Shown: positions 13,688 through 37,446 of the stretch, in pieces
Layout: every line of letters begins with the position of its first letter
Position numbering within the stretch: position 1 is the stretch's first letter
Source: Limisphaerales bacterium
GTDB lineage: Bacteria > Verrucomicrobiota > Verrucomicrobiia > Limisphaerales > AAA164-E04
Direction of reading: 5' to 3'
Length of the DNA stretch: 64,000 bases
Assembly (NCBI GenBank): GCA_024761205.1
Contig: JAMASS010000004.1
Coordinates: forward strand, 434,001 to 498,000
Made by a program: the position numbers and the translations under genes
The notes under the pieces: model-generated
What the model saw: the letters and a program-made list of their open reading frames with translations, nothing else
The model's database searches: none
Told to the model about the DNA's origin: nothing

Positions 13688-13764
<77 letters not shown>

Positions 13765-15330: not shown

Positions 15331-15346
15331 GCGCTGGAATGATCGA

Positions 15347-18920: not shown

Positions 18921-18924
18921 ACCG

Positions 18925-21693: not shown

Positions 21694-21789
21694 CGCCGGC
21701 CATGGCGGGGAGGCAGCCGAAACGCCGTTACTGGTCTAGATTTGTAGACCAGTCTTATACTCAGGTCAGGGAATCGGGCCAGGAAAAGC

Positions 21790-22047: not shown

Positions 22048-22106
22048 TGGCCAGGGAGAACATTGTTCTGGACAACAGAATCGCCATTGCGCTTGGCGTA
22101 AATTGT
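22047..22106 (+). pseudogene. N-terminal stub of a PIN-domain toxin
   Basis: The ATG at 22047 overlaps the stop of the first antitoxin, as toxin genes do, and the product starts MARENIVLDNRIAIALG. This fits the first strand and helix of a PIN nuclease (…IVLDTNxxIAL), with Asn where Thr-Asn usually follows the Asp. After about 16 codons the similarity ends and the second toxin-antitoxin pair begins. Low-length evidence, so only moderate confidence. Confidence 0.45.
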
Positions 22107-22170
22107 GGTCAGAATGGTCAGATAAGCTGCGAGGACGAAAAGCCCCGGAACGGCAGTCGCGGGAGGAAAA

Positions 22171-22419
22171 TTGAAGAACTGGCAGGTGCAACAGGCAAAA
22201 GCGCGTTTCAGCGCCTTGGTGCGCAGCGCCGAGGTGGACGGGCCACAAACGATTACCATCCACGGGCGGCGAGCGGCGGTCGTCCTTTCCGCGAACGACT
22301 ATGACCGCCTGCAACGCCGGCAATCTTCGACGGCGGAGTTTCTGCAAGCCTCTTCCCAAGTGGGCGTGGACCTTGATATCCAGCGCGACCAGGCGCCGCC
22401 ACGCAGCCTCGACCTGTGA
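22171..22419 (+). CDS. Phd/YefM-family antitoxin
   Basis: An 82-residue antitoxin: MKNWQVQQAKARFSALVRSA is the classic Phd N-terminus and TITIHGRRAAVVLSANDYDRL the following strands and helix. The C-terminal part (TAEFLQASSQVGVDLDIQRD) should neutralise the PIN toxin. Its stop TGA overlaps the toxin start in GTGA (22416-22419), so the two are translationally coupled. Complexes of this type repress their own promoter. Confidence 0.88.
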   Translation: MKNWQVQQAKARFSALVRSAEVDGPQTITIHGRRAAVVLSANDYDRLQRRQSSTAEFLQASSQVGVDLDIQRDQAPPRSLDL

Positions 22420-22832
22420 GCTTTCTGGTCGACACATGCGCGTTATCGGAATTGCTCAGGCCGCGGCCCTCCCCCCGCGTTACCGAATGGTTCCTCGCGA
22501 CGCCGCAAACCACCCTGTTCGTCAGCGTCCTGACCCTGGGCGAGATCCGAAAAGGGGTGGCCATGCTCGGCAAGGGCCGCAGCTGGGCGCAACTCACCGC
22601 ATGGCTGGAAACAGAATTGTCCGCCTGGGCCGAAGATCGCATCCTCCCGATTGACGCCGGCGTAGCGGACACCTGGGGCCGCCTCGTAGCCCAGACGCCG
22701 AGCATCCCGGCCATCGACAGCCTGATTGCCGCCACCGCGCTGCACCACCGCCTCGCGGTCGTTACCCGCAACGAGACGGACTTCGCGGATACGGGCGTGG
22801 AGGTGGTGAATCCGTGGGAGGGTTGGGGGTGA
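22416..22832 (+). CDS. PIN-domain toxin, FitB/VapC type
   Basis: A 138-residue PIN ribonuclease. The first acidic residue is Asp6 in FLVDTCALSELLRP, the second Glu43 in VLTLGEIRKGV, and IPAIDSLIAATALHHRLAVVTRNETDF supplies the remaining acidic/Asn residues near the C-terminus. PIN toxins cleave RNA when not held by the antitoxin. It starts at GTG 22416 within the antitoxin stop. The final PWEGWG is typical of the FitB subgroup. Immediately after its stop lies a relic of an hsdR 3' end, showing that this pair was inserted into the restriction operon. Confidence 0.9.
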   Translation: MSFLVDTCALSELLRPRPSPRVTEWFLATPQTTLFVSVLTLGEIRKGVAMLGKGRSWAQLTAWLETELSAWAEDRILPIDAGVADTWGRLVAQTPSIPAIDSLIAATALHHRLAVVTRNETDFADTGVEVVNPWEGWG

Positions 22833-22835
22833 TTC

Positions 22836-22892
22836 AGCTTTTGGGGAACGGACAGTATGTTTGATGAATTGCATGAGGTGTTGGCAGCGTGA
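22836..22892 (+). pseudogene. Relic of an hsdR 3' end between the toxin and hsdS
   Basis: The sequence from CAGCTTTTGGGGAACGG onward matches the last 50 or so bases of hsdR at 21633-21693. The final frame translates to MFDELHEVLAA and a stop, against MVIDELNEALAA at the end of HsdR; about 25 of the last 33 bases are identical. Its TGA overlaps the GTG start of hsdS (GTGA at 22889-22892), so this is probably the original coupled hsdR-hsdS junction. Confidence 0.75.
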
Positions 22893-24442
22893 GCATGCAA
22901 GCCGAGGAGAAGCGACTTCCCAAAGGATGGCTTCATGCTCCGCTCGGGCAAACCATCCAGCCTCGCGGCGAAAAAGTATCCCCCTCTGAGCACCCTGATG
23001 ACAGGTTTATTGGCATGGACCATGTCGAGAGTCACTCGACAAAAATCTTGGGGTCTCTTCCAGCATCCTCCATGAAAAGCAGTGCAGCCCGTTTCCGCAG
23101 CGGGGATGTTCTTTACGGTAGGTTGCGGCCCTATCTAAACAAGGTAGCGCAACCGAATTTTGATGGTCTTGCTTCTGCCGAATTCATCGTGTTTCCAGAT
23201 ACGAAACTGATCTATAGCTGCTTCCTTAAACACCGATTGAACGCAGCCGATTTCGTCAGTTTCGCCAGCCACCTCAATGAAGGGGACCGCCCTCGTGTGA
23301 ACTTTGACCAGATCGGCGAGTTCATGATGCTAATCCCGCCTCTGCAAGAACAACACCGCATCGTCACCAAGATTGAGGAACTGTTTGCCGAGCTGGACAA
23401 GGGCGTGGAGAGCCTGAAGAAGGCCCGCGAACAACTCAAGGTCTACCGCCAAGCCGTGCTCAAACACGCTTTCGAAGGCAAACTCACCGCGCAATGGCGC
23501 GAAGAAAACAAGGACAAACTCGAAACGCCCGAGCAACTACTCGCCCGCATCAAGCAAGAGCGGGAGGCGCGCTACGAACAGCAGCTTGAGGAATGGAACG
23601 CCGAGGTTCGGGCCTGGGAGAAAAACGCGAAAATTGGCAGGAAGGCTACCAAACCATCCGGGTTCAAAATGCCAGTTCCAATTGCGCAGAGCGAATTGGC
23701 CAAACTCCCGGACATTCCATCGTCGTGGCAGTACGTCCGACTATCAGAAATCGCTCGAGTTGGCTCAGGAAAGTCAGTAAGCAGGTCACGCAAATTAGCC
23801 GATCCCATTGAGGTTCCCTATCTGAGGGTAGCCAATGTTCAGCGTGGCAAGCTTGATCTTTCGATGACCAAGTCCATGAAAATCGAGCGTTCTCAACTGG
23901 TCGGACTTGCGCTTCGACGTTGGGACGTTCTGTTTAACGAGGGAGGAGACCGTGACAAGCTTGGCAGAGGCTGGGTGTGGGAGTCGCAGATCGAGCCGTG
24001 CGTTACGCAAAACCACGTATTTCGTGCAAGCCCGTTTCTTGAGTCTTTCCAACACTCCAAGTGGATTTCGCACTGGGGCAACACCTTGGGCCAACTGTAC
24101 TTTGAAGCGCAGGGGAAACAGACGACAAACCTCGCATCAATCAATAAGACAGTACTCAGCAAGTTTCCTATCCCCTTGGCGCCGATTGCGGAACAAGAGG
24201 AGATTCTCCGAAGAGTCGAAAGCCAAACGGCGACTATCGATCACCTAGAACACAAGGTTGCGAAATCTCTTGAACAGATGAACGCCTTGCGACAATCAAT
24301 TTTAAAAAAAGCCTTCTCCGGCCAACTCGTCCCCCAAGACCCCAACGACGAACCAGCCTCCAAACTGCTTGAATGCATCAAGGCCGAAAAGGCCAACGAT
24401 AAGTCGCCACAAAGGAGCCGACGAGGCAAAACACCCGCATGA
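22889..24442 (+). CDS. hsdS: Type I restriction-modification, S (specificity) subunit
   Basis: A 517-residue HsdS with two target-recognition domains. TRD1 covers about residues 10-170; the central conserved coil is marked by PPLQEQHRIVTKIEELF and the helix from 170 to 250; TRD2 begins near LPDIPSSWQYVRLSEIARVGSG and the distal conserved region PIAEQEEILRRVESQ closes it. HsdS binds the two half-sites and positions two HsdM. Start is GTG 22889, coupled to an hsdR-like stop, or ATG 22895 two codons on. The stop overlaps the next gene (ATGA at 24439). Frame is intact, so the locus can be active with hsdM and hsdR. Confidence 0.94.
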   Translation: MSMQAEEKRLPKGWLHAPLGQTIQPRGEKVSPSEHPDDRFIGMDHVESHSTKILGSLPASSMKSSAARFRSGDVLYGRLRPYLNKVAQPNFDGLASAEFIVFPDTKLIYSCFLKHRLNAADFVSFASHLNEGDRPRVNFDQIGEFMMLIPPLQEQHRIVTKIEELFAELDKGVESLKKAREQLKVYRQAVLKHAFEGKLTAQWREENKDKLETPEQLLARIKQEREARYEQQLEEWNAEVRAWEKNAKIGRKATKPSGFKMPVPIAQSELAKLPDIPSSWQYVRLSEIARVGSGKSVSRSRKLADPIEVPYLRVANVQRGKLDLSMTKSMKIERSQLVGLALRRWDVLFNEGGDRDKLGRGWVWESQIEPCVTQNHVFRASPFLESFQHSKWISHWGNTLGQLYFEAQGKQTTNLASINKTVLSKFPIPLAPIAEQEEILRRVESQTATIDHLEHKVAKSLEQMNALRQSILKKAFSGQLVPQDPNDEPASKLLECIKAEKANDKSPQRSRRGKTPA

Positions 24443-25101
24443 CCATTAAACTCTCCATCGCTTTTGACAGCCTGTTCCGCCAACGTGCCGCTGAGATCGA
24501 GCGCACCGGGTATCCTGAGGTTCAAATCAATGTCGTTTGGTCTGCGCCCGGCGCTGAAAGCGAGCGGGTGATGGAGAACGAGTTCAAGGGGTTGCTGCCC
24601 TTCGTTCTTCACGATGCCATCAACCACATCGGAAGGATCTATCTCACGCAAACGGTCATCAAGACTGGGGGTACTCCCCGGGTGAGGCGATTCTGGAACT
24701 TTTCCATCGACGCGATCAAGGAAGCCCTGATTAACGCGATCTTTCATCAATCATATGAGGAGCCGACGCCGGTCGAGGTACAGGTCACTCGACGGGAAAT
24801 ATCGATCTTGAGCTTTCCCGGCCCCGACCCGTCCATCCGCATGGAAGACGTGCAGGCGGGACGCGCCGTCAGCCTCCCCCACCGAAACCACCGTATCGGG
24901 GAAATTCTCAAGGAACTCGACCTGGCCGAGGGCCGCTCAACAGGAATCCCGAAGATGCTGGAGGCTGTGCGAAAGAATGGTTCTCCCGTTCCGATCTTCG
25001 AAAGCGATGAACGCCGGACATGGTTTCTGGTCCGTCTCCCGGTGCATGAACAAACATGTCCCGGGCCGGGCGAGTCTGAAACTGTGGAAATCTCTACATG
25101 A
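24439..25101 (+). CDS. C-terminal fragment of a Schlafen/AlbA-type ATP-binding protein
   Basis: A 220-residue protein matching only the second half of the 'RecG-like / divergent AAA_4' proteins. It has a GHKL-type (HATPase_c_4) fold: the N-box in IKEALINAIFHQSYEE, SFPGPDPSI, and the G-box in LAEGRSTGIPKMLEA, ending YFLVRLPVHE-like. The N-terminal AlbA/Schlafen nuclease-like domain of full-length members is missing. Overlapping ATGA junctions on both sides (24439, 25098) tie it into the hsdS-hsdM message, which suggests it is translated and perhaps kept as an operon member, but it may equally be a remnant. Function unknown. Confidence 0.75.
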   Translation: MTIKLSIAFDSLFRQRAAEIERTGYPEVQINVVWSAPGAESERVMENEFKGLLPFVLHDAINHIGRIYLTQTVIKTGGTPRVRRFWNFSIDAIKEALINAIFHQSYEEPTPVEVQVTRREISILSFPGPDPSIRMEDVQAGRAVSLPHRNHRIGEILKELDLAEGRSTGIPKMLEAVRKNGSPVPIFESDERRTWFLVRLPVHEQTCPGPGESETVEIST

Positions 25102-26588
25102 ACACCGCCCCCATTGTTTCCAAAGTCTGGAGCTTCTGCACCACCCTGCGCGATGACGGGGTGAGCTATGGCGACTATCTGGAGCAGCTCACCTATCTGA
25201 TCTTCCTCAAGATGGCGGACGAATACGCCAAGCCGCCCTACAAGCGCGATGTCGGCATCCCCGCCGAATACGACTGGCAGAGCCTCAAGTCGAAGACCGG
25301 CGCGGACCTTGAAGCTCACTATGTCGCCCTGCTGCGCGAACTCGGCGGCAAGCGCGGCATGCTGGGCCAGATATTCACCAAGGCGCAGAACAAGATTCAG
25401 GATCCCGCGAAGTTGTACCGCCTCATCGACATGGTGGACGACACCGAATGGGTCACGATGGGCGCGGACATCAAGGGCGATATCTACGAGGGCCTGCTGG
25501 AAAAAAACGCCGAGGACACCAAATCCGGCGCCGGCCAGTACTTCACGCCACGCGCCCTCATCCGCGCCATGGTCGAATGTATCCGGCCCGAACCGGGCAA
25601 GCGCATCGCCGACCCGGCCTGTGGCACAGGCGGGTTCTTTCTGGCCGCCTACGACTTCATCACCAACCCGGACAACTTCAAGCTCGACAGAACCCAGAAG
25701 GCGTTCCTGAAGCACGAGGCGTTTCACGGCAACGAGATCGTCGCCAACACCCGGCGGCTGTGCCTGATGAACATGTTCCTGCACAACATCGGCGAGATCG
25801 ACGGCGGTGCGCCCATATCGCCGAATGATTCGCTCGTGGCCGATGCCGGCGAGCGCTTCGACTATGTGCTGGCGAACCCGCCCTTCGGCAAGAAAAGCTC
25901 CATGAGCTTCACCAATGAGGAGGGCGAACAGGAACGGGACGATCTGACCTACAACCGGCAGGACTTCTGGGCGACGACATCGAACAAGCAACTCAATTTC
26001 GTGCAGCACATCCGCACGATGCTCAAGACCACCGGCCGCGCCGCCGTGGTGGTGCCGGACAACGTGCTGTTCGAAGGCGGCGCCGGGGAGACCATCCGCA
26101 AAAAACTGCTCGACAACACGGACCTGCACACCATCCTGCGCCTGCCTACCGGCGTGTTCTACGCCCAGGGGGTCAAGGCCAACGTGATCTTCTTCGACAA
26201 CCACGAAGCCAGCCCGAACCCCTGGACGAAGCGGGTCTGGTACTACGACTATCGCACCAACATTCACCACACGCTGAAGAAGAAACCGATGCGCTTCGAG
26301 GACCTGGCGGATTTCGTCAAGTGCTACAACCCGCACAACCGCCACCAGCGCAAGCCCACCTGGGATGAGCAGGACGCGCCCGACGGCCGCTGGCGCAGCT
26401 ACAGCTACGAGGAACTTTGCGCCCGCGACAAAACCAGCCTCGACATCTTCTGGCTCAAGGACAAAAGCTTGACAGACCTGGATAACCTGCCAGAACCGGA
26501 TGAGCTGGCCGAGGAAATCATTGAAAATCTTGAAGCGGGTTTGAACAGCTTCCGCGAGGTGCTGGCGGGCTTGCGGCAGTCGGGGTAG
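25098..26588 (+). CDS. hsdM: Type I restriction-modification, M (adenine methyltransferase) subunit
   Basis: A 496-residue N6-adenine DNA methyltransferase. An N-terminal helical domain (about 1-140) is followed by the SAM motif I DPACGTGGF at 172-180 and catalytic motif IV NPPF at 260-263, with QYFTPRALIRAM just before motif I as in other HsdM. It modifies host sites and, with HsdS, forms the core of the restriction complex. Its position as the last gene, after hsdR and hsdS, is unusual; the common order is R-M-S or M-S-R. The start ATG overlaps the previous stop (ATGA). Intact. Confidence 0.95.
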   Translation: MNTAPIVSKVWSFCTTLRDDGVSYGDYLEQLTYLIFLKMADEYAKPPYKRDVGIPAEYDWQSLKSKTGADLEAHYVALLRELGGKRGMLGQIFTKAQNKIQDPAKLYRLIDMVDDTEWVTMGADIKGDIYEGLLEKNAEDTKSGAGQYFTPRALIRAMVECIRPEPGKRIADPACGTGGFFLAAYDFITNPDNFKLDRTQKAFLKHEAFHGNEIVANTRRLCLMNMFLHNIGEIDGGAPISPNDSLVADAGERFDYVLANPPFGKKSSMSFTNEEGEQERDDLTYNRQDFWATTSNKQLNFVQHIRTMLKTTGRAAVVVPDNVLFEGGAGETIRKKLLDNTDLHTILRLPTGVFYAQGVKANVIFFDNHEASPNPWTKRVWYYDYRTNIHHTLKKKPMRFEDLADFVKCYNPHNRHQRKPTWDEQDAPDGRWRSYSYEELCARDKTSLDIFWLKDKSLTDLDNLPEPDELAEEIIENLEAGLNSFREVLAGLRQSG

Positions 26589-26602: not shown

Positions 26603-29107
26603 CTACGTATCCGTGAGGCGTTTAAACGCGATAGAGCCCATTAGATCTGGAAACAACAGGTTGCGCTCGGAAAGTATATTTGTGAGCTCTGTGTGAACTG
26701 TTAGTGGAAGTGCTGACGAGTTAACGTCCTCTACAGCAGAAATCAATCTTTCGCTCAACTTTTTTAACTCTGACAAGTCGGCCAAAACCATCTCTGGTCC
26801 AGGGTTCGCCTGACTGGCAACAGGGAGATACGGCCCAACGAATACGGGCAAAATTTCCGTCGCGGTCGTGTTTTCCTTAACCCATTGGATATGATTTAGA
26901 AGTTGGCTAATATCTTTCTTCTTGTATTGCGATGTTTCTAACTTATCGGTCTTCAACTCCATGCAAACTGCAGTGACCGCCGTGTCTTTGCTAATCTCCC
27001 ACAATACGTCTGGCCCCGTACCAAGGTCATTATCAGGGCGGCTGGCGCGAAGTCCAAGATACTGGCCTAACGCCCTTACAGCTTCTTCCGTTTCTCGGGG
27101 CGTTCCACTGCCGTCAAGTGGAGCTAAATCTTTATATATACGGCTAGGTATATTCAAAGAACTATCTGGGGCTTCTGTCATCAACGTAGCGATCTCGTTC
27201 ACTTGATCCGAAACGACGTTGTTTGACTGGCCAACCTGTCTTGGTAATGGTGGGATATTATTCTGATTGGCATGAGCACATATGTACTGCCGATGCGCGG
27301 ACTTGTCGTCCCCAATCAGCGAATATGCTAGACCCAGCCATAGACTGTGCCATGCCCCGATGGAGGGGCTTAGTTTATAGGCTTTGTCTAAAGTACCCTC
27401 AAATGCTCGAATAGCGCCCTTATAGTCACGCTTCCAAATGCGCAGACCGAATTCTGACTCCGATTGCGCTAGCTCTGTGAGAACCTCGGAGTTCTTCGAC
27501 TCCAGTTCCGGTTCCGCTTCACGCATAAAGTTGCTATAGGTCTGAATCCAATTCTCGTCCCGATTAAGGCAAGCGTTGCAAGCATCGAGAACATCATCTA
27601 TGGTTTCTGAATTCTCCGCCACCTTTTGCCCAAGCTGAATCTGCTTCTGGAGGAAGGCTGGTAACGTCGAAAGATTTCTGGGAATAGTTAACCAATCGAT
27701 CAAACGTTTTCCAGTCAGTACTATCACCCCGTGATCGCTAAGACCCCGAGATATCCGTCCGAAACTCTGGACGATGCGAGAGGCAACCAGAGTCCGCAAT
27801 GTGTTGGAGAGATTCAACTTTTCCCATAAGAATCGCTCAAGCGGGCCGGTGCCTGTAGGTAAATCATCAATGATCATTATGCGACAAGTATCACCTGGCA
27901 AATCGATGCCGTCATATCTTGCGGCAAGGATAAGCTTTGACTTCTCTAAGTCTGTTCGAAATTCTTGAACAGCTTCGGTAACTTTGTCGGTGTCGGGTGG
28001 AGAAACAATACTGCCCCAGCGTTTTGCTCGCTCGTATCCTGGAACGAGGATCAGGGCCTTTTTGTCTTGGACAAGCTGAACAGCCGAATCAATACCTTCC
28101 AAATCTTTATCTAACCTTTTAGGAATAAGGATTAGACGTTCGCACTCACCTGCGGAGGTCGCAGGCGCGATCATATGACCTGGACTCCGACCAAACGTGC
28201 GCGCAAAGGCGTCCGGTGCAGCTAACGTTGCTGACAGGTAGATTCTGCGGACGTTTTGCTCGAAGTAATACAAGTAAGGTGTCGGAAGAAAGGCTGGGGT
28301 GATGGTCATCTCTGTGGCGGATATCAATACACAGCTAATGTCCACTCGATCTCGAAGGTACTCCCATGCAAACATCGTGTCGCGATGTTCGCCGAATTGC
28401 CCTGCGTGGAGGACACGCTGGAGTTCCCCCATATTTTTGCTAACTTCGAAAGGAGGCACTAGAAAAAATTTCCGGGAACTTCCGGACTCCAATTCACCGT
28501 AGCTCATCGCTTGCCCAATGCTCTGGTGATAAGGCCGAAACAACGCAATGATGCGCGAGTAAAGATCTGGAAACTGGTTTTTTGTAACATGAAGCGAGAA
28601 ATGATCTCGAAGAAGGTGCTCGGCAGCATGCGCATCATCAAAGATAACCGCTTTAGGTTCGGGTTCTCTACTTAGGAACCGACTCTTTCCATTGAACAAC
28701 GCTTGGTACGTGGTTACGCAGGCAGCTTCCCCGCGGTGAAATTTTTCGTTTGAAAAATCCCGCTGGAAGTACGTCGTCACATCTAGGCCATATCCCCGAG
28801 CCTTGTCCTCCGTCTGCTTGATGAGTTGTATCGAACTGCATGCATATAGAACTTGCGCTCTGGTCTCGTTCACAAGTGCCTGTGCGATCAGGAGCCCCAC
28901 GAGTGTCTTTCCGGCACCGGTGTTTAGTACTATTCCGATATCCTGCAATTTGCGGTTCGCATGCCATTCGCGCAAAGCATCGCCCTGAGCAAGCCACAGA
29001 TCGTTGATGTTTTTATCGGCAACGCTGAGCCCTCGAAATATCTCAAGCGGGTCTGTAGGTCTGCTGACTCGCTTTGCTGCTTGGATTTTTGTCAAATCGA
29101 GAGGCAT
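26603..29107 (-). CDS. Superfamily 2 helicase with C-terminal nuclease-like domain
   Basis: An 834-residue protein. Residues 40-500 hold an SF2 helicase: Q-region, Walker A NTGAGKT at 62-68, DDAH in AVIFDDAHAAEHLL, motif III IYLSATL, and a motif VI-like VQSFGRISRG. A helical middle part with TPR-like spacing (about 540-620) follows. Near the C-terminus, GPDVLWEISKDTAVTAVCMELK gives the D...ExK spacing of PD-(D/E)xK nucleases. It fits the style of stand-alone anti-phage helicase-nucleases, but I do not recognise a named system. The gene is convergent with hsdM (15 bases apart) and has lower GC and more A/T-ending codons than its neighbours, suggesting separate acquisition. Start is the ATG at 29105-29107 (complement). 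Confidence 0.75.
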   Translation of the reverse strand: MPLDLTKIQAAKRVSRPTDPLEIFRGLSVADKNINDLWLAQGDALREWHANRKLQDIGIVLNTGAGKTLVGLLIAQALVNETRAQVLYACSSIQLIKQTEDKARGYGLDVTTYFQRDFSNEKFHRGEAACVTTYQALFNGKSRFLSREPEPKAVIFDDAHAAEHLLRDHFSLHVTKNQFPDLYSRIIALFRPYHQSIGQAMSYGELESGSSRKFFLVPPFEVSKNMGELQRVLHAGQFGEHRDTMFAWEYLRDRVDISCVLISATEMTITPAFLPTPYLYYFEQNVRRIYLSATLAAPDAFARTFGRSPGHMIAPATSAGECERLILIPKRLDKDLEGIDSAVQLVQDKKALILVPGYERAKRWGSIVSPPDTDKVTEAVQEFRTDLEKSKLILAARYDGIDLPGDTCRIMIIDDLPTGTGPLERFLWEKLNLSNTLRTLVASRIVQSFGRISRGLSDHGVIVLTGKRLIDWLTIPRNLSTLPAFLQKQIQLGQKVAENSETIDDVLDACNACLNRDENWIQTYSNFMREAEPELESKNSEVLTELAQSESEFGLRIWKRDYKGAIRAFEGTLDKAYKLSPSIGAWHSLWLGLAYSLIGDDKSAHRQYICAHANQNNIPPLPRQVGQSNNVVSDQVNEIATLMTEAPDSSLNIPSRIYKDLAPLDGSGTPRETEEAVRALGQYLGLRASRPDNDLGTGPDVLWEISKDTAVTAVCMELKTDKLETSQYKKKDISQLLNHIQWVKENTTATEILPVFVGPYLPVASQANPGPEMVLADLSELKKLSERLISAVEDVNSSALPLTVHTELTNILSERNLLFPDLMGSIAFKRLTDT

Positions 29108-29283: not shown

Positions 29284-29622
29284 TCAAGGTTCTTGCGGTC
29301 GGTACTGCCAATCACGCGTCTCAGCAAACTTCTTCAGGTATTTTGCTTTTTTCGTGATTTGGGTGTTGGAGTTGCCGTCGAATTTGATTACCGCGTGTTC
29401 GGGGAATCGATTAGGGTCGGGCTCAACGGGAAGGGCTTGGCTGCCACACTCGGCAACAGTCACGGCTAGGACTCCATGGGATGCCAGATTTAACCCGTTG
29501 ACATAATGCGTCCATGCATCTTGGGCTGTAATTTTGTCCCCATCATAGACAGACAGCCTCTTCTCGTCTTTTTTGGTGGGAGTGAACGCCTGGGATGTGA
29601 CGCGCCCCGCACGAATCCAGCT
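29284..29622 (-). pseudogene. Truncated paralogue of the 35,178-35,600 gene, fused into the hsdR2 3' end
   Basis: In the frame shifted by one from hsdR2 the minus strand reads SWIRAGRVTSQAFTPTKKDE, then LSVYDGDKITAQDAWTHY, VLAVTVAECGSQ, DPNRFPEHAVIKF and ends near TRDWQYRPQEP. Each block lines up with the third gene of the unknown operon (WIQDDVITSQAFTPTPKDS, LSVYDGDQITPEQSWNHY, VVAVAVSECKGAG, DPEPFPQHAVIDF, ERGWQYQSGEP). The N-terminal part is missing and replaced by hsdR2. The identity is moderate, so this came from a second, divergent copy of that operon. Confidence 0.85.
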
Positions 29623-32302
29623 CGGGCTCGGCGCGGTGGCCGCCGACGCCAGCCGGCACCGGCTCGATCTCGGCGTTCTCGTCGGGGAGCATGATCTTCT
29701 GCACCGCCTGCTTCTCGACGCGGTAGCTGTCCATGTCGATGGCGTCGAGAATCCCTTTCGACAGATCGTCCTCCTGAGGGGACGGCAGCTTGGGGATCAG
29801 GAAGTTGAGGAAGATCGAACGCATCTCCCAGGCGGCATTGGTCCAGGGCAGGACGCAGGAGAGGAAACTGTAGGTCCGCACGAATCCCTTGGCCTTGCCC
29901 TTGAAGTCAACCTGCTCGTCTTCATTCAGGTTGTCCCGGTAGGCAGCCACGCACATGTCGAGAATGGGGTCCAACTGGTCGCGCTCGTCGCCGTCGAGGT
30001 AGCGCCGCGCGAAGTCCTCGACCTGGCCGGGCGCATACACCTCGGCGCCGTCCAGGTCTGCTTGCAGATCGTGCAGCTTGTCGGGGTCGGTCTCGTCGGA
30101 GAGGATCGTCGCACGGTAGAAATCCGCGAACGCGTTGCGGATCGTCTCGGCGTCGTTCAGGAAGTCCAGCACGAAGACATCGTGCTTCTTCGGGTGCGCC
30201 CGATTGAGACGTGAGAGCGTCTGCACCGCCCGGATGCCGGACAGCGTCTTGTCCACGTACATCGTATGCAGCAGGGGTTCGTCGTAGCCGGTCTGGAACT
30301 TGTCGGCGCATACGAGGAACCGATAGGGGTGCTCCCGAATTTTCTCGGTGATCTGGTTGGCGGGGAACCCGTTGAGCGACGCCTCGCTGACCCTTGCACC
30401 GCCGTATTCGGGCTCGCCGGAGAAAGCGGCGATGGCCCGCCAAGGGCTCTTTCGGTCATCCAGGTAGTCCCGGATGGCGTGGAAATACTGAATCGCGCGA
30501 GCGACTCCGTTGGTGACCACCATCGCCCGCGCTTCGCCGCCGATCTTCTTCCGGGCGATGACCTGCTCGTGGAAGTGGTCCATCATGATCTCGGCCTTGA
30601 GGCGGATCGCGTGGTGGTGGCCCTCGACGAAGCGCCGCAGCTTCTTCCGCGCCTTGTTCGCATCGAACTCCGGGTCGTCCTCGATCGTCTTGGCGAGCTT
30701 GTAGTAGCTCGTCACCGGCGTGTAATGCGACAGCACGTCCAGAATGAAACCTTCCTGAATCGCCTGCTTCATGGTGTAGCTGTGGAACGCGCGATGCCTG
30801 ACAGCGCCGTCCGGCTGCGGGTCCGGTTCGCCGAATATCTCCAGCGTCCTGTTCTTGGGCGTGGCGGTGAACGCGAAGTAGCTGGCGTTGGGGAGCAGCT
30901 TGCGCGATTCCATCAGGTGGTTGATCTGGTCCTCGAAAGTCTCCTCTTCCTCTGCCGCACCAGCCTCGGAGAGCGCCTGCGCCATCGCCGCGCTGGTGCG
31001 CCCGCCCTGGCTGGAATGGGCCTCGTCGATGATGATGGCGAAGCGGCGCCCGCGCTGCTCATTGCCGATCTCGTCGAGGATGAAGGGGAACTTCTGCACC
31101 GTCGAGATGATGATCTTCTTGCCGGTCTCGATGAAGCGGCGCAGGTCGCCGGAACGTTCGGCATGACCCACGGTGGCCCCGATCCGGGCGTATTGCCTGA
31201 TGGTGTCGTTGATTTGGCGATCGAGGATGCGCCGGTCGGTGACCACGATGATGGAATCGAAGATCGGAGCGCCATCCCGGGCGAGCCCGATCAACTGGTG
31301 CGCCAGCCAGGCAATGGAGTTGCTCTTGCCGCTGCCGGCCGAGTGCTGAATCAGGTAGCGCCGTCCCGCACCATGCGCGGCAACGTCCGCCAGCGCCCGG
31401 CGCACCACGTCGAGCTGGTGATAGCGCGGCCAGATCTGTGTGCGATTCTTCCTGCCCGTTTTCTCGTCCTTCTCCTTCACCACCTGGACGTAGTTCTCAA
31501 GAATGTGGGTGAGGTTCTCTCGGGTCAGCACCTCGCGCCATAGATAGTCGGTCTTGATTCCGTCCGGGTTGGGCGGGTTGCCGGCGCCGTCATTCCAGCC
31601 GCGGTTGAAGGGCAGGAACCACGACTCCTTGCCCTTGAGGTTCGTGCAAAAGCGCGTTTCGGCCTCATCCACCGCGAAATGCGCAACGCAGCGGCCGAGT
31701 TCGAACAGCTTCTCGCGCGGATTGCGGTCCTTCCTGTATTGCTCGACCGCGTCGCCCACCGTCTGTTTGGTGAGATTGTTCTTGAGTTCGAAGGTGATGA
31801 CCGGCAGACCATTGATGAAAAGCGCGATGTCCAGCGCCCGCTGCGTCTCGTCGCGGCTGTAGCGAAGCTGCCGGGTAACGGTGAATCGGTTCTGGACGAA
31901 CCGTTCCTGGGCCTGAACATTTCCGGGCGACGGTGTGCCGTAGAACAGCTCCAGGCGATGGGCGCCGTGCTGGATGCCGTTCCGCAAGACGTCGACGGTG
32001 CCGCGCTTCGCGATCTGGCCCTGCAGCCGCGCCAGAAACTTGCGCCGGGTCGGACCGTCTTCGTTCAGCGCCAGCGACTCGGCCGCCTCGGGCTGGGTTG
32101 CGTGGAGGAAGGCGGCAAGCTGGCCGAGATCAACGCAGTACTCGCGGTCGTAATCGTATGGACTGCCGCCGTTCCAGCCGACGCCGCCATAAGCGGTGCG
32201 CGCCTCCGCCGTTCTCCCTTCCTCCAGAGGATCGCAGGGATGTCCGGCCAGCGCCGTGCAGATCAGCGCCTCAAGGCCCTTCTCGCTGGTGTCGGTGGTC
32301 AC
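29543..32302 (-). CDS. hsdR: Type I restriction enzyme R subunit, 3'-truncated
   Basis: A 919-residue HsdR of a different subtype from the first (EcoR124-like). Nuclease core: residues near FELKNNLTKQTVGDAVEQY with the Glu-Leu-Lys; SF2 motor: Walker A SAGSGKS around residue 325, DEAH in FAIIIDEAHSSQ, SATPKNRT-like motif III (AFTATPKNRT), and motif VI QTLSRLNR. The native C-terminal helical domain is missing: after EIEPVPAGVGGHRAEPELD, where other HsdR continue for about 100 residues, the frame runs into the relic of another gene for 23 residues and stops. Since the C-terminal domain docks HsdR on the methylase, and hsdS2 and hsdM2 are broken, this locus is probably dead. Lies last in a leftward operon. 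Confidence 0.88.
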   Translation of the reverse strand: MTTDTSEKGLEALICTALAGHPCDPLEEGRTAEARTAYGGVGWNGGSPYDYDREYCVDLGQLAAFLHATQPEAAESLALNEDGPTRRKFLARLQGQIAKRGTVDVLRNGIQHGAHRLELFYGTPSPGNVQAQERFVQNRFTVTRQLRYSRDETQRALDIALFINGLPVITFELKNNLTKQTVGDAVEQYRKDRNPREKLFELGRCVAHFAVDEAETRFCTNLKGKESWFLPFNRGWNDGAGNPPNPDGIKTDYLWREVLTRENLTHILENYVQVVKEKDEKTGRKNRTQIWPRYHQLDVVRRALADVAAHGAGRRYLIQHSAGSGKSNSIAWLAHQLIGLARDGAPIFDSIIVVTDRRILDRQINDTIRQYARIGATVGHAERSGDLRRFIETGKKIIISTVQKFPFILDEIGNEQRGRRFAIIIDEAHSSQGGRTSAAMAQALSEAGAAEEEETFEDQINHLMESRKLLPNASYFAFTATPKNRTLEIFGEPDPQPDGAVRHRAFHSYTMKQAIQEGFILDVLSHYTPVTSYYKLAKTIEDDPEFDANKARKKLRRFVEGHHHAIRLKAEIMMDHFHEQVIARKKIGGEARAMVVTNGVARAIQYFHAIRDYLDDRKSPWRAIAAFSGEPEYGGARVSEASLNGFPANQITEKIREHPYRFLVCADKFQTGYDEPLLHTMYVDKTLSGIRAVQTLSRLNRAHPKKHDVFVLDFLNDAETIRNAFADFYRATILSDETDPDKLHDLQADLDGAEVYAPGQVEDFARRYLDGDERDQLDPILDMCVAAYRDNLNEDEQVDFKGKAKGFVRTYSFLSCVLPWTNAAWEMRSIFLNFLIPKLPSPQEDDLSKGILDAIDMDSYRVEKQAVQKIMLPDENAEIEPVPAGVGGHRAEPELDSCGARHIPGVHSHQKRREEAVCL

Positions 32303-32449: not shown

Positions 32450-33235
32450 TCATGCGGCTTCGTGGAGGGAGGCGCCGAATTCATCCGGCCGAGACCAGTG
32501 CGATACCGTGGACAGCGGCTCGACCAACCGGTAATCCTCGTCCGCCCAGACATCGTGGGTGTCGTCAAACAGGGAAACGAACGCCAGTGCTTCCGGTTCC
32601 GCAGTAAGGTGATTCAGGTCGTACCAGGCGGCGAGCACGCGCTCCGAGACTCTGTGTGCCGCAGCGCGATTCCCCGTACTCAGTACCTGGACCAGAGAGC
32701 TGCGTCGCTCGGTTCGCACGCGGAAATGGACCGTTCGGCGACGTTTTGATTTACCGACCAGTTTTTCGTCGCGTCTGAATGCGAATTTGCACTTAGTCAG
32801 AAATTTGGCGACATCGTCGATAATGGACTGGGCGCCCTGCGTCCGGAAGGTGAACCACAGGTCGGATACTCGCAGTGCTGCCTGCGCCACTCGGGTGACA
32901 ACCTGCGCCAACTCATCCTCGGACTCACAGCGCGCCTGGAGCATCCCGCGGTAGAACTCGACTCCGTGCGTCAAGCAGGTGTCCTGAATGAGCGCGGTCT
33001 GCTTGGGGGATCGGCGCTGGGTCGACGACTGCATGCGAAGCCAGCCGGTCGTTTCAGCAAGATCGCTCACTATCAACGTGCCACCGTCGACCTTGCAGAA
33101 CAGGTCGATGTTGTCGCCGTCCGGATATAGATATGGTGTGCGGATTCGCTCGTAGTCACCGTGCTTTGAACATGTGAACAAGGCTCCGATCGTGCGCTGT
33201 AGGTTCTGACACATGTCGCTGGCGTACATCACCAT
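32450..33235 (-). CDS. DUF1828/DUF1829-type protein
   Basis: A 261-residue protein starting at the ATG complementary to 33233-33235. The N-terminal part with PYLYPDGDNIDLFCKVDGG, then LIVSDLAETTGWLRM, matches what I recall as DUF1828, and the rest fits DUF1829. No catalytic motif is obvious. Its start overlaps the stop of the DUF6978-like gene by one base (TAATG), so the pair is made together. I recall these two families side by side in other genomes, often in defence islands, which makes them a candidate two-gene system; here they lie inside the decayed type I locus between hsdS2 and hsdR2. Confidence 0.75.
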   Translation of the reverse strand: MVMYASDMCQNLQRTIGALFTCSKHGDYERIRTPYLYPDGDNIDLFCKVDGGTLIVSDLAETTGWLRMQSSTQRRSPKQTALIQDTCLTHGVEFYRGMLQARCESEDELAQVVTRVAQAALRVSDLWFTFRTQGAQSIIDDVAKFLTKCKFAFRRDEKLVGKSKRRRTVHFRVRTERRSSLVQVLSTGNRAAAHRVSERVLAAWYDLNHLTAEPEALAFVSLFDDTHDVWADEDYRLVEPLSTVSHWSRPDEFGASLHEAA

Positions 33236-33705
33236 TACTCCCTCCACGCTGGCGGTGGCAGTTCTTGCATCAAGCCATCATGCCGAATACGTGCCGAGGC
33301 ACAGAATTCTGTCCAGACCGTCGCAGGATCCGTAACCGGCGCGTTCAAATCATTCGGAACATAGGCTTCCTTGTCTCCGTATTGTTCCGACCAGCGATGC
33401 ATGTGCTTCTCCCCAACTTGATTGCACTGCGGGTTGTGGTGGTCCCTACCCAGATCAAGAGCGTAGATGCGCCCAGCCCCCGGCCTCCTCAGAATAAGCG
33501 CGTAGAACAACTTTCTGGGTTCCATGTTGTAACTTCCGTAGTTGTAACTTCCGTGGACGAACAGCGGCCAGCCGCTCTCCGATTCGATACCCACCCGGAA
33601 CTCCACTGCCGGGGATCGGTCCTCGTCCTCCTTCCAGGTGACGTCTTCCAGGATACGTTTCGTCTTGTCCTCTAGGATAGCCTCAAATTCAGCATCCGTC
33701 AGCAC
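33235..33705 (-). CDS. DUF6978-like protein
   Basis: A 156-residue protein beginning MLTDAEFEAILEDKTKRI. The core has EFRVGIESESGWPLFVHGSYN, then YALILRRPGAGRIYALDLG, DHHNPQC and HMHRWSEQYGDKEAYVP; the conserved His-His-Asn, Cys and His residues in the second half could form a metal site or active site. I recall this as DUF6978 but cannot check. It is translationally coupled to the DUF1828 gene. A 15-base duplication inside it gives GSYNYGSYN. No homology to known restriction proteins. Confidence 0.7.
   Translation of the reverse strand: MLTDAEFEAILEDKTKRILEDVTWKEDEDRSPAVEFRVGIESESGWPLFVHGSYNYGSYNMEPRKLFYALILRRPGAGRIYALDLGRDHHNPQCNQVGEKHMHRWSEQYGDKEAYVPNDLNAPVTDPATVWTEFCASARIRHDGLMQELPPPAWRE
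33526..33555. repeat. 15-bp tandem duplication inside the DUF6978-like gene
   Basis: GTTGTAACTTCCGTA at 33526-33540 is followed directly by GTTGTAACTTCCGTG at 33541-33555, 14 of 15 bases identical. It repeats the peptide GSYN-Y on the minus strand and keeps the frame. Confidence 0.85.
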
Positions 33706-33931: not shown

Positions 33932-34767
33932 TCATGCGGTTGCCTCGCCTTGCATTGTTGGTTTCGCTGCTGTTTCGGCAGCGCTGTAGTGATTTTGGTT
34001 CATATAATCCGCCGTTGCGCCGCCCGCTTCCAGCAGTTCCTCGTCGGCACCCTCGTCGGGCAATTGTCCCGCTGCTTCGCGCACATCAAGCTTGCCGGTC
34101 ACGGCATCGGCGATGAGACGGGTGCGGTATTCGCGGAGCAGTTCGATTTGGCGACGGCAGCGGGCGACACCACGATCTATGCTGGCGGTGGTCTCATTGA
34201 GGAAGCGGGCGATGGCGGCTTGTTCGGGGAGGGGTGGCATAGCCAAGCCCATGCGCTTGAGTTGAGTGGCGTAGATGTGGATTACGGTGAAGCCACGGCG
34301 CCCATAGCTGCTTTCTGGGTCATTGCTGACTGGCAATTGGTCGCGTAGCCCAAATACCCTGCTTCGATCTTCCCGTGTGGTCGAAACAGGATCACATCTC
34401 CACCGCAGCAGGCTTCGGAGCGAAGCAAGTTCACCGCTGATTTACCTATTTCGTCAATTGTTTCTCCAGAAGCAGCAAAGAGGACATCTCCGAACTTGAT
34501 CGGTGTGTATGCCTTGGCTCGTTCTCTGGAGATGAAGGAACGACTATTTTGAATGAAATTTCGGTGTGTCGTGTACAAATCTCCATATCTAATACAAGGA
34601 ATCCCCGAGTCCTATTCGTCTTCTTTGTTGCCTCCTCCACCCTTGGAGAAGGTTCCGATCTGACCTAGCCGTCGCACCTCCCAATGCGTCGGCACATTCC
34701 CCAGCCACTCAACGCCCGAGTCCTTATAGGCGGGATAGGGGTGAAGGGTGCTTGGCGGGTCCGTCAT
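33932..34767 (-). pseudogene. hsdS: hsdS2, broken specificity-subunit gene
   Basis: From the ATG complementary to 34765-34767 the frame reads HPYPAYKDSGVEWLGNVP, then THWEVRRLGQIGTFSKGGGG, a typical HsdS start. A TAG (about 34613-34615) interrupts the frame right after GNKEDE. The frame goes on with DSGIPCIRYGDLYTTHRN and DVLFAASGE, then shifts by one base near 34300 (…TQKAAMG / GFTVIHIYATQLK) and ends with the distal conserved region PPLPEQAAIARFLNETTASI. The total is only about 278 codons, so one TRD and the central spacer are also missing. It cannot make a normal HsdS. It starts 11 bases after the antitoxin-like gene. Confidence 0.85.
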
Positions 34768-34777
34768 TTCGCACCGC

Positions 34778-35077
34778 TTATTCCGGCTTCCGAGCCAACT
34801 CCAGGCACCCGCTGGTTACGGACTGGCGCAGCGTCTGGAGGTGCTCCTCCCAGTCTGGTTCCACGCCGTAGCCTCGGCGGGCGTCGCACTCGGCGAAGAA
34901 CCTCTCCAGATTTTCCGGGGAATCAACCCGGGCCCGCCGTTGCCGCTCCTCCAAGCGCTCCCGGGCAGCGACCCTCAGCCAGGCGCTGAACGTCATGCCC
35001 TCCCGACGCGCCTGCTGAGAGAACCTGTCTCGGTCCTCATCAGGGATAATCAACTGTATCCTGGCCATCCTGCGCAT
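34778..35077 (-). CDS. VapB/RHH-like antitoxin without a visible toxin
   Basis: Starts at the ATG complementary to 35075-35077: MRRMARIQLIIPDEDRDRF, then QARREGMTFSAWLRVAARERL, an RHH DNA-binding fold, followed by an acidic toxin-binding tail (SPENLERFFAECDARRGYGVEPDWEEH). About 99 residues. Such antitoxins normally precede a PIN toxin; here hsdS2 follows after 11 bases and no toxin frame is present, so it may serve as a regulator of the locus or be left over. Confidence 0.75.
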   Translation of the reverse strand: MRRMARIQLIIPDEDRDRFSQQARREGMTFSAWLRVAARERLEERQRRARVDSPENLERFFAECDARRGYGVEPDWEEHLQTLRQSVTSGCLELARKPE

Positions 35078-35177
35078 CTTCTGTATTGGGGGTATGTGTA
35101 TGTCGCATATCACGAAACCACTGGGCAAGCCCCTTCCGAGCCACTCGACGTCAGAAGGTTTCTAGGCGGGGTAGGGG

Positions 35178-35600
35178 TCATGCGGGTTCTCCGCTCTGGT
35201 ATTGCCAGCCCCGCTCCCGCGCATGCTTCGCCAAAATTTTCCCGATCTTTTTTGTTTTTGAGCGGGACAGAGAGCCGAAGTCAATCACTGCGTGTTGCGG
35301 AAACGGTTCAGGGTCAGGTCTTGCTGTAGTGCCAGCGCCTTTGCACTCTGAAACCGCTACGGCCACTACTCCAGCCGACACATTTTTCAACGTGTCAGTG
35401 TAGTGATTCCAAGACTGCTCAGGAGTGATTTGGTCTCCGTCATATACGGAAAGTTCTTGGCTGTCTTTTGGGGTGGGAGTAAATGCTTGGGAGGTGATTA
35501 CGTCGTCTTGTATCCAGTTGGGATGGATTTGACGCAAAAGAAGGGTATTGTCGTTCACTCCACCACAGACTCCAATCGCCTTATTTCCCGCACAAGCCAT
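35178..35600 (-). CDS. Third gene of an unrecognised three-gene operon
   Basis: A 140-residue protein from the ATG complementary to 35598-35600, overlapping the previous gene by 46 bases. N-terminus ACAGNKAIGVCGGVNDNTLL suggests a glycine-rich strand-turn; the conserved blocks VITSQAFTPTPKDSQELS, YDGDQITPEQSWNHY, DPEPFPQHAVIDF and ERGWQY are shared with the relic at 29284-29622. I remember this pattern as a hypothetical protein that travels with a TIGR04255-like partner, but no function. No signal or membrane segment. Conservation of the blocks between two divergent copies shows that the gene was under selection. Confidence 0.7.
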   Translation of the reverse strand: MACAGNKAIGVCGGVNDNTLLLRQIHPNWIQDDVITSQAFTPTPKDSQELSVYDGDQITPEQSWNHYTDTLKNVSAGVVAVAVSECKGAGTTARPDPEPFPQHAVIDFGSLSRSKTKKIGKILAKHARERGWQYQSGEPA

Positions 35601-36370
35601 TCCCACGAACTCGGACAATTTAAGTCCAAATGTCGTTCGCTGATTTCGCGGGTAGCGAGGTTAAGACAGTGCCAATCCGCCTCCTGGGCGCCCAAGTCAA
35701 TTTCCAAGCTTGCATCGTTTTGCCCCAAGAGCCACTCAGCCTGAACGCCCCCCTCTGGTGTTGGATACAGGCGCGGTTGCGGAAGGCTTGACGTGTAGTG
35801 CAGGGCAAACTGGTCGGTCAGCCAGTCCAACTCAGAAGCGTTGGGGGCCTTACCGTAGCCATCACCCCATTGGCTAGCAGGCTGCATGCCGTCTGCCCAA
35901 CCATGCTCCACGTTCTTGAAACTGGCCAATCTACGAGCGATGTTTGGTAGCGCGTTTAGTGGCGCGTTGGGCCAGACTCTTGTTGCCCTAGATAGGGCAT
36001 CAATCGAATATGCCGTCCCCATCACCGATGGCGCTGCTACTGTTACATCCTGCATGGCTAAGTCTTGCGAATTAGTGCTAGTTCTTAGGGTGAACACATT
36101 TCGTGTTTCAGTAGACAAACCGGATATGTTCCTAGAGAACGTCCTAGGCAGGTACTCGACGCAATAATGTGGCAGCAGGTCAACGATATTTTCTAAAAAA
36201 GCGAAGAATGTTGGGGCAGATGTCTCTTCTTCGACATAGCTCGGATGGTATCGAGCAATGGGTAGTGACGGCCTTGTCGAACGATTATTGCCCTGATTGC
36301 CGAAAGATAGCGAGCCTCCCTGCCCCGGGAAGATTTCATTTGGCTTTTCTGCTACAGCGGTGCTAGTCAT
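35555..36370 (-). CDS. Second gene of an unrecognised three-gene operon
   Basis: A 271-residue protein starting at the ATG complementary to 36368-36370, eight bases inside the previous gene (ATGACTAG). Two parts are visible: an N-terminal region with ARYHPSYVEEETSAPTFFAF, and a C-terminal domain with DGMQPASQWGDGYGKAP, RLYPTPEGGVQAEWLLG and SLEIDLGAQEADWHCL. The latter is a compact domain I have seen in several hypothetical proteins with the pattern 'W-DGYGA-AP ... P-P-GG-Q-EW ... LEI'. No catalytic residues can be named. Coupled to both neighbours, so the three probably form one complex or pathway. Confidence 0.7.
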   Translation of the reverse strand: MTSTAVAEKPNEIFPGQGGSLSFGNQGNNRSTRPSLPIARYHPSYVEEETSAPTFFAFLENIVDLLPHYCVEYLPRTFSRNISGLSTETRNVFTLRTSTNSQDLAMQDVTVAAPSVMGTAYSIDALSRATRVWPNAPLNALPNIARRLASFKNVEHGWADGMQPASQWGDGYGKAPNASELDWLTDQFALHYTSSLPQPRLYPTPEGGVQAEWLLGQNDASLEIDLGAQEADWHCLNLATREISERHLDLNCPSSWEWLVREIRRLESVVE

Positions 36371-37022
36371 CACGCCCCTGATTGTCCAAGTTCTTAATGA
36401 ATATATGGGCTTGTTCCCACACTTCCTGAAAGGTTTGCTCAATTTCCGCCCTATCGGGTATCCGTCGCTCTGCTTTGTGCAGGTTAAGGTTCAAGAATAC
36501 ACGCGGGTCTTCTTCACTGTTAAACCGTGGCTCAACTTGAACGCTCCAGCGGCCAGCTTTTGAATCAAAGACCAACTTCCCCGCTCCCCCAATGAGACTC
36601 CAGCCGTCAGCGCCAAATTCCCTCTCTGCGAATAGACGGGCACCGAGGTAGTTGAGCGCCGGAGATTTTGTATCTTGATTGTAGACCAATTCCATGTTGT
36701 AACCAAAAGCAGTTGGCACCTGCTCCTGCAAGTCTGTCTTGCTCACAGCGTAGTCAACGACTTCGGCTAGGCGGCCTAAATCCTTTTCCGCAGGGTATTC
36801 TCGCTCAATTGTTGTCCGGTGGTTTGGGACAACCTCTAAGGCAATCCTGTCTCGCTGCAACGAAACCCTCTTTCCGATGCCTGGAGGAACTAATGGCATT
36901 TCGGTTACCACTTCAGCACCAACTGCCTGCGAGAACGCGTTGATTTCATCAGGGTTATCGAGGAGCCCGATGCCAGCGAAGACAATGTTGACCTTCAGTA
37001 CATCCTTTACTTCAGTTGGCAT
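36363..37022 (-). CDS. First gene of an unrecognised three-gene operon (TIGR04255-like?)
   Basis: A 219-residue cytoplasmic protein from the ATG complementary to 37020-37022. It starts MPTEVKDVLKVNIVFAGIGLL and has GYNMELVYNQDTKSPALNYLG, then a beta-rich stretch with GGAGKLVFDSKAGRWSVQVEP and NLHKAERRIPDRAE. It might be a distant TIGR04255-type protein (those are sporadic, island-borne and often next to a hypothetical gene), but I cannot support that beyond length and context. The coupling to the next two genes is clear from overlaps. A promoter must lie in the 60 bases between it and the hsdM2 relic. Confidence 0.65.
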   Translation of the reverse strand: MPTEVKDVLKVNIVFAGIGLLDNPDEINAFSQAVGAEVVTEMPLVPPGIGKRVSLQRDRIALEVVPNHRTTIEREYPAEKDLGRLAEVVDYAVSKTDLQEQVPTAFGYNMELVYNQDTKSPALNYLGARLFAEREFGADGWSLIGGAGKLVFDSKAGRWSVQVEPRFNSEEDPRVFLNLNLHKAERRIPDRAEIEQTFQEVWEQAHIFIKNLDNQGRDD

Positions 37023-37082: not shown

Positions 37083-37446
37083 TCAACGACGCACGGACAC
37101 GCCTGAAACCACGCCTCCCATAATCTCCTCTAGCAGGCCCTCAGTCTCCCGTTCCACCGCCAGGATTGTCCGCCCGTATCTCTACCAAGCGCCCGCATCG
37201 GCTGCGGTTTGTAGAAGTGGCGGGTGAAGCTGATCTCGTAGCCGATCTTCACGCTGTTGAGCCGATACCAGGCGTCTGGGGCGTAGGGCAGAACCTCACG
37301 CCGCAGGAAAGCTTCGATCCCGCCTTTCTCCTGCAACGGGATCTGCTCCGTGTCGCGCAGGTCGGTGTCCGGTTTCTATTCCACCACGGCGGGCTCTCTT
37401 TCAGTGCCTTGATTTCTGCGGTCTTGTAGGCGCGGTTCGGGTCAGT
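37083..37446 (-). pseudogene. hsdM: hsdM2, 3' relic of a second type I methyltransferase
   Basis: The minus strand reads EPAVVE-stop-KPDTDLRDTEQIPLQEK, GGIEAFLRREVLPYAPDAW, KIGYEISFTRHFYKPQP and, after a frameshift near 37185, TILAVERETEGLLEEIMGG and a stop at 37083-37085. These are the last 100 or so residues of an EcoR124-type HsdM, with a stop, a deletion upstream (DPNRAYKTAEIKALKE joined to the AVVE segment) and a frameshift. The methylase core with DPACGTG and NPPF is gone. It shows that the second locus once had the order hsdM2-(passengers)-hsdS2-(passengers)-hsdR2. Confidence 0.85.

What the first reader, a model, noticed from the sequence alone, without database searches (positions are those of the whole stretch)
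35178..37022. Unrecognised three-gene operon, present twice in the island
Three overlapping genes with no named function. The third has a divergent relic copy at 29284-29622, so two versions of the operon existed in the same island. Conserved blocks (SQAFTPT-KD, LSVYDGD-IT, PEHAVI-F, WQY) point to a real, selected domain. Its position within an RM locus makes it a candidate defence module.
Basis: partly seen in the sequence, partly recalled or inferred. Interest (0 to 1): 0.65.

Follow-up and report, generated by a model that had tools for sequence, protein, structure and literature searches.

The report
RM-embedded two-protein defence cassette (PDC-M32)
A pair of overlapping bacterial genes that repeatedly sits inside type I restriction operons, here with an extra first gene; one protein is predicted to fold like ADP-ribose-transferring enzymes, so it may be a phage-triggered effector with its own keeper, but no activity has been shown.

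Summary
In detail: three overlapping intact genes (minus strand, 35178-37022) and a 5'-truncated second copy of the third gene (about 29285-29628, 49% identical) fused to a truncated hsdR. "Unrecognised" is half right: genes 2 and 3 match PADLOC's phage defence candidate PDC-M32A/B; gene 1 and gene 2's N-terminus match nothing. "Operon present twice" is too strong: only the third gene has a second copy.

New here: (1) M32A-M32B is a mobile pair found in many phyla; in 18 of 63 related loci it lies between hsdM and hsdS, as it does among the decayed hsd fragments of this window. (2) M32B's confident model resembles the ADP-ribosyltransferase fold; invariant R9, S37 and H89 fall on the strands that carry the three ART motifs, with His where Glu or Asp is usual. 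(3) M32A's C-terminal domain is constant while what precedes it changes; a distant version occurs downstream of TIGR04255 genes, often followed by a divergent M32B-like gene.

Best explanation: an ART-fold effector held by an M32A keeper/adaptor, carried by or guarding type I RM, comparable to PrrC and to RM-embedded DarTG. Catalysis, toxicity and phage defence are untested. New variant of a known candidate family.

The parts
35178..35558 (-). M32B (gene 3), 126 aa from GTG, ADP-ribosyltransferase-like fold predicted; R9, S37, H89 intact; near-invariant R27 is T and E88 is Q in this copy
   Evidence: PADLOC PDC-M32B E 2e-51; 57-row alignment; AlphaFold2 model pLDDT 94.5; VIA rows
35555..36370 (-). 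M32A' (gene 2), ~271 aa: ~145-aa N-terminus without relatives, then the M32A C-terminal domain
   Evidence: PDC-M32A E 1.9e-30 over aa 144-267 only, model positions 258-371 of 376; N-terminal 145 aa match no other ORF of 5057
35573..35944 (-). constant C-terminal domain of M32A' (GW.DG...P.LYPT.EGG.Q.EW)
   Evidence: PADLOC match range, alignment A1
36363..37022 (-). gene 1, 219 aa, orphan; occupies the place that TIGR04255 genes hold in distant operons
   Evidence: no family hits; no relatives; TIGR04255 membership not shown
29285..29628 (-). 5'-truncated second M32B (112 aa from residue 14, open to its stop)
29543..32302 (-). hsdR missing its C-terminal ~100 aa, joined out of frame to the M32B remnant; 73% identical to HsdR of M32-bearing Cyanobium operons
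37107..37396 (-). C-terminal hsdM fragment in two frames (decayed), 70-73% identical to M32-linked HsdM of Cyanobium/Synechococcus
33935..34737 (-). broken hsdS
34778..35128 (-). 116-aa ribbon-helix-helix-like ORF between M32B and the hsdS remains; no relative in the other M32 loci
   Evidence: weak RHH matches below Pfam cut-offs

Best explanation
A toxin/effector module of the PDC-M32 kind that travels in and out of type I RM operons. Shown: M32B is a highly constrained ~125-aa protein almost always encoded directly after, and overlapping, an M32A-type gene; M32A has a constant C-terminal domain and exchangeable front parts. Strongly indicated: M32B has an ADP-ribosyltransferase-like fold, with invariant R9 in strand 1, S37 in strand 2 and H89 at the front edge of strand 5. 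Inferred: the M32A C-terminal domain binds M32B and keeps it inactive or aims it. The front part (NTD plus OB fold in the usual form; gene 1 plus an unrelated N-terminus here) reads a signal such as foreign nucleic acid or loss of the RM complex. On the signal M32B performs NAD-type or nucleotidyl chemistry on a nucleic acid or protein and stops the infection. In this window the RM operon around it has decayed while the three genes stayed open, which fits a module kept for its own sake (defence or addiction).
For: Defence-candidate family match. hsdM upstream and hsdS downstream within 3 kb on the same strand in 18 of 63 genome loci, some RM gene in the held flanks in 26 of 63; independently, Pfam N6_Mtase in 17 of 45 upstream neighbours and Methylase_S in 13 of 54 downstream neighbours. 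Repeated gain/loss of the embedding: 12 changes on the tree of 40 informative rows; 200 label shuffles gave 9-17. M32A found next to M32B in 68 of 69 loci, called ORFs overlapping by exactly 4 nt in 35 of 68. Fold: model pLDDT 94.5; the 19 best VIA rows (Z 7.8-4.7) are all ART-fold entries by name or recall (15 Tpt1/KptA, AvrPphF ORF2, CC0527 twice, TreTu), next unrelated row Z 3.6. Invariant R/S/H positions against strands match the ART motif places (strands 1 and 2, front edge of strand 5) given in PMC7955679 passages. OB fold in the usual M32A (SilF/PriB/RPA, Z 8-10). AF2212-like domain in front of the CTD in L039 and L046. Third-gene homology in TIGR04255 operons. Precedents: DarTG2 between hsdS and hsdR (PMC12255303), PrrC embedded in a type IC operon (PMC3874165).
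Against: Foldseek finds no match at E <= 0.001 for M32B and Z 7.8 is below the tool's own caution line of 8. Profile comparison with DUF952 gives probability 0.7%. The usual catalytic Glu is absent and E88 is only 50 of 57 (Q here), so the enzyme may be dead. 37 of 63 loci show no RM gene with my models, many on short contigs; 0 of 6 viral loci do. One of ten strong M32A hits (L102) has no M32B beside it. No toxicity, binding, NAD or phage data exist. This window's M32B departs at two near-invariant sites.
Confidence: 0.42

Rival explanations
1. RM accessory: M32A/M32B are subunits or regulators of the host type I enzyme (assembly, restriction control or target modification) rather than an independent effector.
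For: Exact insertion between hsdM and hsdS with 4-nt overlaps on both sides, e.g. L021, L052, L055.
Against: 37 of 63 loci show no RM gene nearby; prophage and plasmid carriage without hsd; here the genes stay open while hsdM, hsdS and hsdR are broken.
Confidence: 0.22
2. Selfish addiction cassette (ordinary toxin-antitoxin pair) with no specific defence role, using RM operons and prophages as landing places.
For: Overlapping two-gene layout, patchy distribution (6 of 387 phylum genomes; 13 of 398), frequent movement, AF2212-like domain in two loci.
Against: Large, changeable front parts (NTD plus OB, repeats in L103) look like sensors rather than operator-binding antitoxin domains; strong link with RM and other candidate systems.
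Confidence: 0.2
3. M32B is a catalytically dead ART-fold or KH-like nucleotide/RNA-binding adaptor, and the complex acts by binding only.
For: No conserved acidic residue at motif III; lower VIA rows are KH domains, Z 3.6 and less.
Against: Seven strictly invariant residues including R, S and H on the motif strands in 57 of 57 rows, a pattern typical of an active site.
Confidence: 0.13

Closest known systems
PDC-M32 (PADLOC phage defence candidate, PDC-M32A + PDC-M32B)
   Same: M32B full length and the M32A C-terminal domain; gene order and overlap
   Different: Window M32A' has a different N-terminus and an extra first gene; PADLOC gives no function, and the only paper found naming it lists it in Sinorhizobium prophages (PMC12429752, passages read)
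DarTG2 embedded in a type I RM (RRDM island)
   Same: A two-gene module with an ART-fold enzyme (DarT; recalled) inside a type I RM operon (PMC12255303, abstract and one results section read)
   Different: DarTG lies between hsdS and hsdR, M32 between hsdM and hsdS; no DarT or DarG match in M32A/B
PrrC / EcoprrI
   Same: Latent effector embedded in a type I hsd operon, proposed guard logic (PMC3874165, one passage read)
   Different: PrrC is an anticodon nuclease with its own ATPase part (recalled); no sequence relation seen
DUF952 and Tpt1/KptA (ART clan)
   Same: Fold by VIA; DUF952 proteins also show a basic residue in strand 1, Ser in strand 2 and a conserved FPH in the last part (read by eye sequences)
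   Different: No sequence-profile support; KptA has an extra N-terminal lobe
TIGR04255-linked operons
   Same: A gene with the M32A-type C-terminal domain follows TIGR04255 in at least 5 of 18 loci, in several followed by an M32B-like gene
   Different: Very divergent; the window gene 1 is not a TIGR04255 member by HMM

Membership tests
PDC-M32 | M32B protein matching PDC-M32B | tested here: met
   E 2e-51 over 120 of 123 positions
PDC-M32 | M32A protein matching the whole PDC-M32A model | tested here: not met
   Only model positions 258-371 of 376 match, so this is a variant with another N-terminus
PDC-M32 | A and B adjacent and co-directional | tested here: met
   GTGA overlap
ADP-ribosyltransferase superfamily | ART fold | tested here: inconclusive
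   VIA Z 7.8, rmsd 2.8, 90 aligned to Tpt1, well above unrelated rows (3.6); Foldseek not significant. Leaning yes
ADP-ribosyltransferase superfamily | Conserved residues on strands 1, 2 and the front edge of strand 5 | tested here: met
   R9, S37, H89 in 57 of 57 rows on strands 6-11, 35-40, 89-93; motif places from PMC7955679
ADP-ribosyltransferase superfamily | R-S-E or H-Y-[EDQ] triad | tested here: not met
   R-S-H; E88 is 50 of 57 and Q in the window
ADP-ribosyltransferase superfamily | NAD use and transferase activity | not testable with these tools
   needs biochemistry
TIGR04255 (for gene 1) | Score above curated cut-off 30 bits | tested here: not met
   no match; own genome 0 matches; hhalign 17.9 within control range up to 19.6
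DarTG | DarT and DarG homology | tested here: not met
   no DarT/DarG hit for any of the three proteins
Toxin-antitoxin pair | Toxicity of one gene neutralised by the other | not testable with these tools
   layout is compatible; AF2212-like N-terminus in two relatives
PrrC-type RM-embedded effector | Located inside a type I hsd operon | tested here: met
PrrC-type RM-embedded effector | Homology to PrrC | tested here: not met
   no Pfam family matched for the three proteins

The most novel reading that the evidence does not exclude
PDC-M32 and the TIGR04255 operons are branches of one large, undescribed modular immune family. Its constant core is a GW-motif adaptor domain plus a small ART-fold effector with an R-S-H active site, and its sensor is swapped freely (NTD plus OB fold, antitoxin-like domain, repeats, TIGR04255, or the orphan gene 1 here). 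The M32 branch specialised in guarding type I RM enzymes from between hsdM and hsdS.
Probability: 0.27. Interest if true: 0.82.

Novelty: new variant of a known kind. Interest (0 to 1): 0.57.

Why it matters
It turns a nameless PADLOC candidate into a testable hypothesis with named catalytic residues and a natural partner system. It would add an NAD-type effector to the small set of 'fail-safe' modules inside type I restriction operons, and would give a first functional handle on the widespread, unexplained TIGR04255 family.

Tried and rejected
Gene 1: no relatives in 386 other genomes of the phylum sample, 398 genomes of a second phylum, 9 genomes holding M32 loci, plasmids, phages or viral contigs; hhalign to TIGR04255 (17.9) lies within the control range (60 random proteins, best 19.6), so I do not claim membership. 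gene1 against the first gene of L108: no signal.

M32B to DUF952 by profile: no support. Viral structure library: best hit E 6e-3, TM 0.48, no name. PDB sequence searches for M32B, gene 1 and M32A: nothing reliable. Third-gene relatives on plasmids: none. A single-sequence search for M32B in genome contigs failed; the alignment-based one worked.

First-look weak matches (tyrosinase, carbohydrate deacetylase, TMP-TENI) rejected as chance. Chain families absent from the VIA lists are not treated as excluded.

Control caveat: one of four shuffled-column control sets (L106 and L127 dropped) produced one outlier of 141.6 that I could not explain; the other three sets peaked at 16-19.

Rows dropped: the upstream-neighbour scan used 45 of 56 loci with a neighbour (8 opposite-strand and 3 long ORFs left out); the downstream scan 54 of 60. 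In two rows (L034 up, L030 down) I put the hsd ORF by hand in place of an overlapping opposite-strand ORF picked by the greedy rule. Alignment A5 holds 56 loci plus the window; truncated, frame-shifted or duplicate loci were left out.

Full report
What is there. On the minus strand of the window lie gene 1 (36363-37022), gene 2 (35555-36370) and gene 3 (35178-35558), translationally overlapping. PADLOC names genes 2 and 3: PDC-M32A (only its last third, E 1.9e-30) and PDC-M32B (E 2e-51). Pfam, NCBIfam and PHROGs give nothing informative beyond two phage families of unknown function. The second copy of gene 3 is a 5'-truncated M32B at about 29285-29628. It is nearer to M32B of an uncultured Thiocystis (59%) than to the window's own copy (49%), while the window's copy is nearest to a Phycisphaerae M32B (59%). 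That argues for two acquisitions rather than a recent duplication, though the tree does not settle it.

The setting. The three genes sit inside the wreck of a type I RM operon in the order hsdM fragment (37107-37396), gene 1, M32A', M32B, an RHH-like ORF, broken hsdS (33935-34737), PDC-M24A/B, and hsdR lacking its C-terminus. The hsdM fragment and hsdR are 70-73% identical to those of Cyanobium operons that themselves carry M32 between hsdM and hsdS, although the Cyanobium M32B belongs to another branch. So the RM frame and the M32 cassette have different histories.

Distribution. From a 7-row alignment, 63 loci in species genomes and 6 in viral contigs were found, spread over at least Planctomycetota, Verrucomicrobiota, Lentisphaerota, Pseudomonadota, Cyanobacteriota, Acidobacteriota, Actinomycetota, Chloroflexota and Myxococcota (titles). 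Frequency is low: 6 of 387 genomes of the window's phylum including itself, 0 of 14 controls; 13 of 398 genomes of a second phylum, one being the centre by construction and four of the 13 weak. The relatives that lie in the same phylum sample suggest Verrucomicrobiota (inference). An M32A-type gene precedes M32B in 68 of 69 loci. hsdM upstream and hsdS downstream within 3 kb, same strand: 18 of 63; any RM gene by my models: 26 of 63; 0 of 6 viral. The label 'embedded' changes 12 times on the tree, no fewer than in shuffles (9-17), so the pair moves often.

Architecture. The usual M32A (~375 aa) models well (pLDDT 93.6) as an N-terminal domain, an OB fold at 172-256 (SilF Z 10.2, PriB 8.0, RPA 8.0) and a C-terminal alpha/beta domain. 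Shorter forms keep only the C-terminal domain behind other fronts: an AF2212-like stretch in L039 and L046 (Pfam), a repeat-like front in L103 (read by eye), OB-like remnants in L040 and L072 (by eye), and the orphan N-terminus here. The constant unit is therefore the CTD plus M32B.

What M32B may be. The model is confident (pLDDT 94.5, pTM 0.87). Foldseek alone is not significant, but realignment puts 19 ART-fold chains on top, 15 of them Tpt1/KptA (best 8tfi: Z 7.8, rmsd 2.8, 90 aligned), then AvrPphF ORF2 (Z 6.2), CC0527 (5.8) and TreTu (4.7), before a drop to 3.6 for KH domains. PMC7955679 (passages read) places ART motifs I and II in strands 1 and 2 and motif III at the front edge of strand 5, and lists PTS_2-RNA, DUF952 and AvrPphF-ORF-2 among ART families. 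In M32B strands 1, 2 and 5 are residues 6-11, 35-40 and 89-93, and R9, S37 and H89 are invariant in 57 of 57 sequences. An R-S-H set is not the classical R-S-E, so activity is open.

A wider family. Searching M32A in the second phylum also hit small proteins by the CTD alone. In L106 this protein follows a TIGR04255 gene (E 8e-13) and precedes an M32B-like ORF (HMM E 0.003). A CTD HMM built only from usual M32A sequences then found a CTD gene in 5 of 18 TIGR04255 loci at E < 1e-3 (one of them the same locus as L106) and in three more at 0.003-0.01 (loci: 12 of 120 and 4 of 91 genomes). Third genes chosen by position align to the M32B profile with probability 94% and E 1.3e-7; without L106 the score falls to 29-34, still above shuffled columns (at most 19 in all but one odd control set) and above 120 random proteins (at most 21), with the R, S and H columns kept by eye. 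This is moderate evidence. The word TIGR04255 is in no paper of the library, and PDC-M32 is in one.

Function. The best reading is an effector (M32B) with a keeper/adaptor (M32A) whose front part reads the trigger, often housed in a type I RM operon. DarTG2 inside a type I RM island protects E. coli against several phages as part of that island (PMC12255303, abstract and section 20 read), and PrrC is a latent nuclease inside a type IC operon (PMC3874165, one passage). These are analogies, not membership. Neither toxicity, NAD use, nor defence is shown for M32. In this genome the persistence of three open genes amid broken hsd genes favours a function of their own, but two unusual substitutions in M32B (R27T, E88Q) leave its activity uncertain.

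Noticed in passing
13996-17619 (+), next to tRNA-Met 13688-13764: Three overlapping genes at the island edge: a protease-like protein with a DarG-type macrodomain stretch (PADLOC DarG E 5e-6, capP E 6e-19), a protein read by eye as kinase plus adenylosuccinate-synthetase-like, and a 240-aa protein that looks ART-like by eye; possibly an ADP-ribosylation cassette.
   Followed up: partly
32450-33705 (-): PDC-M24A and PDC-M24B (DUF6978, DUF1828), another PADLOC candidate pair, lying between the broken hsdS and hsdR.
   Followed up: partly
26603-29107 (-): PDC-S28, an 834-aa helicase-like candidate defence protein (E 2e-285).
   Followed up: no
18787-26588 (+): A second, open-looking type I RM system (hsdR, PIN-like ORF, hsdS, small ORF, hsdM) beside the decayed one.
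   Followed up: no
L039 and L046 (planctomycete contigs): M32 with an AF2212-like front sits at the same place between two genes of one planctomycete cluster in both contigs.
   Followed up: no
L102 and L107: L102: M32A without M32B beside it; L107: a protein with only the M32A N-terminal domain, next to a nucleotidyltransferase-like ORF (by eye).
   Followed up: no
Rhodococcus plasmid pN9T4-2 (L124): An M32B homologue on a mobilizable plasmid near a DNA methyltransferase, annotated hypothetical.
   Followed up: no
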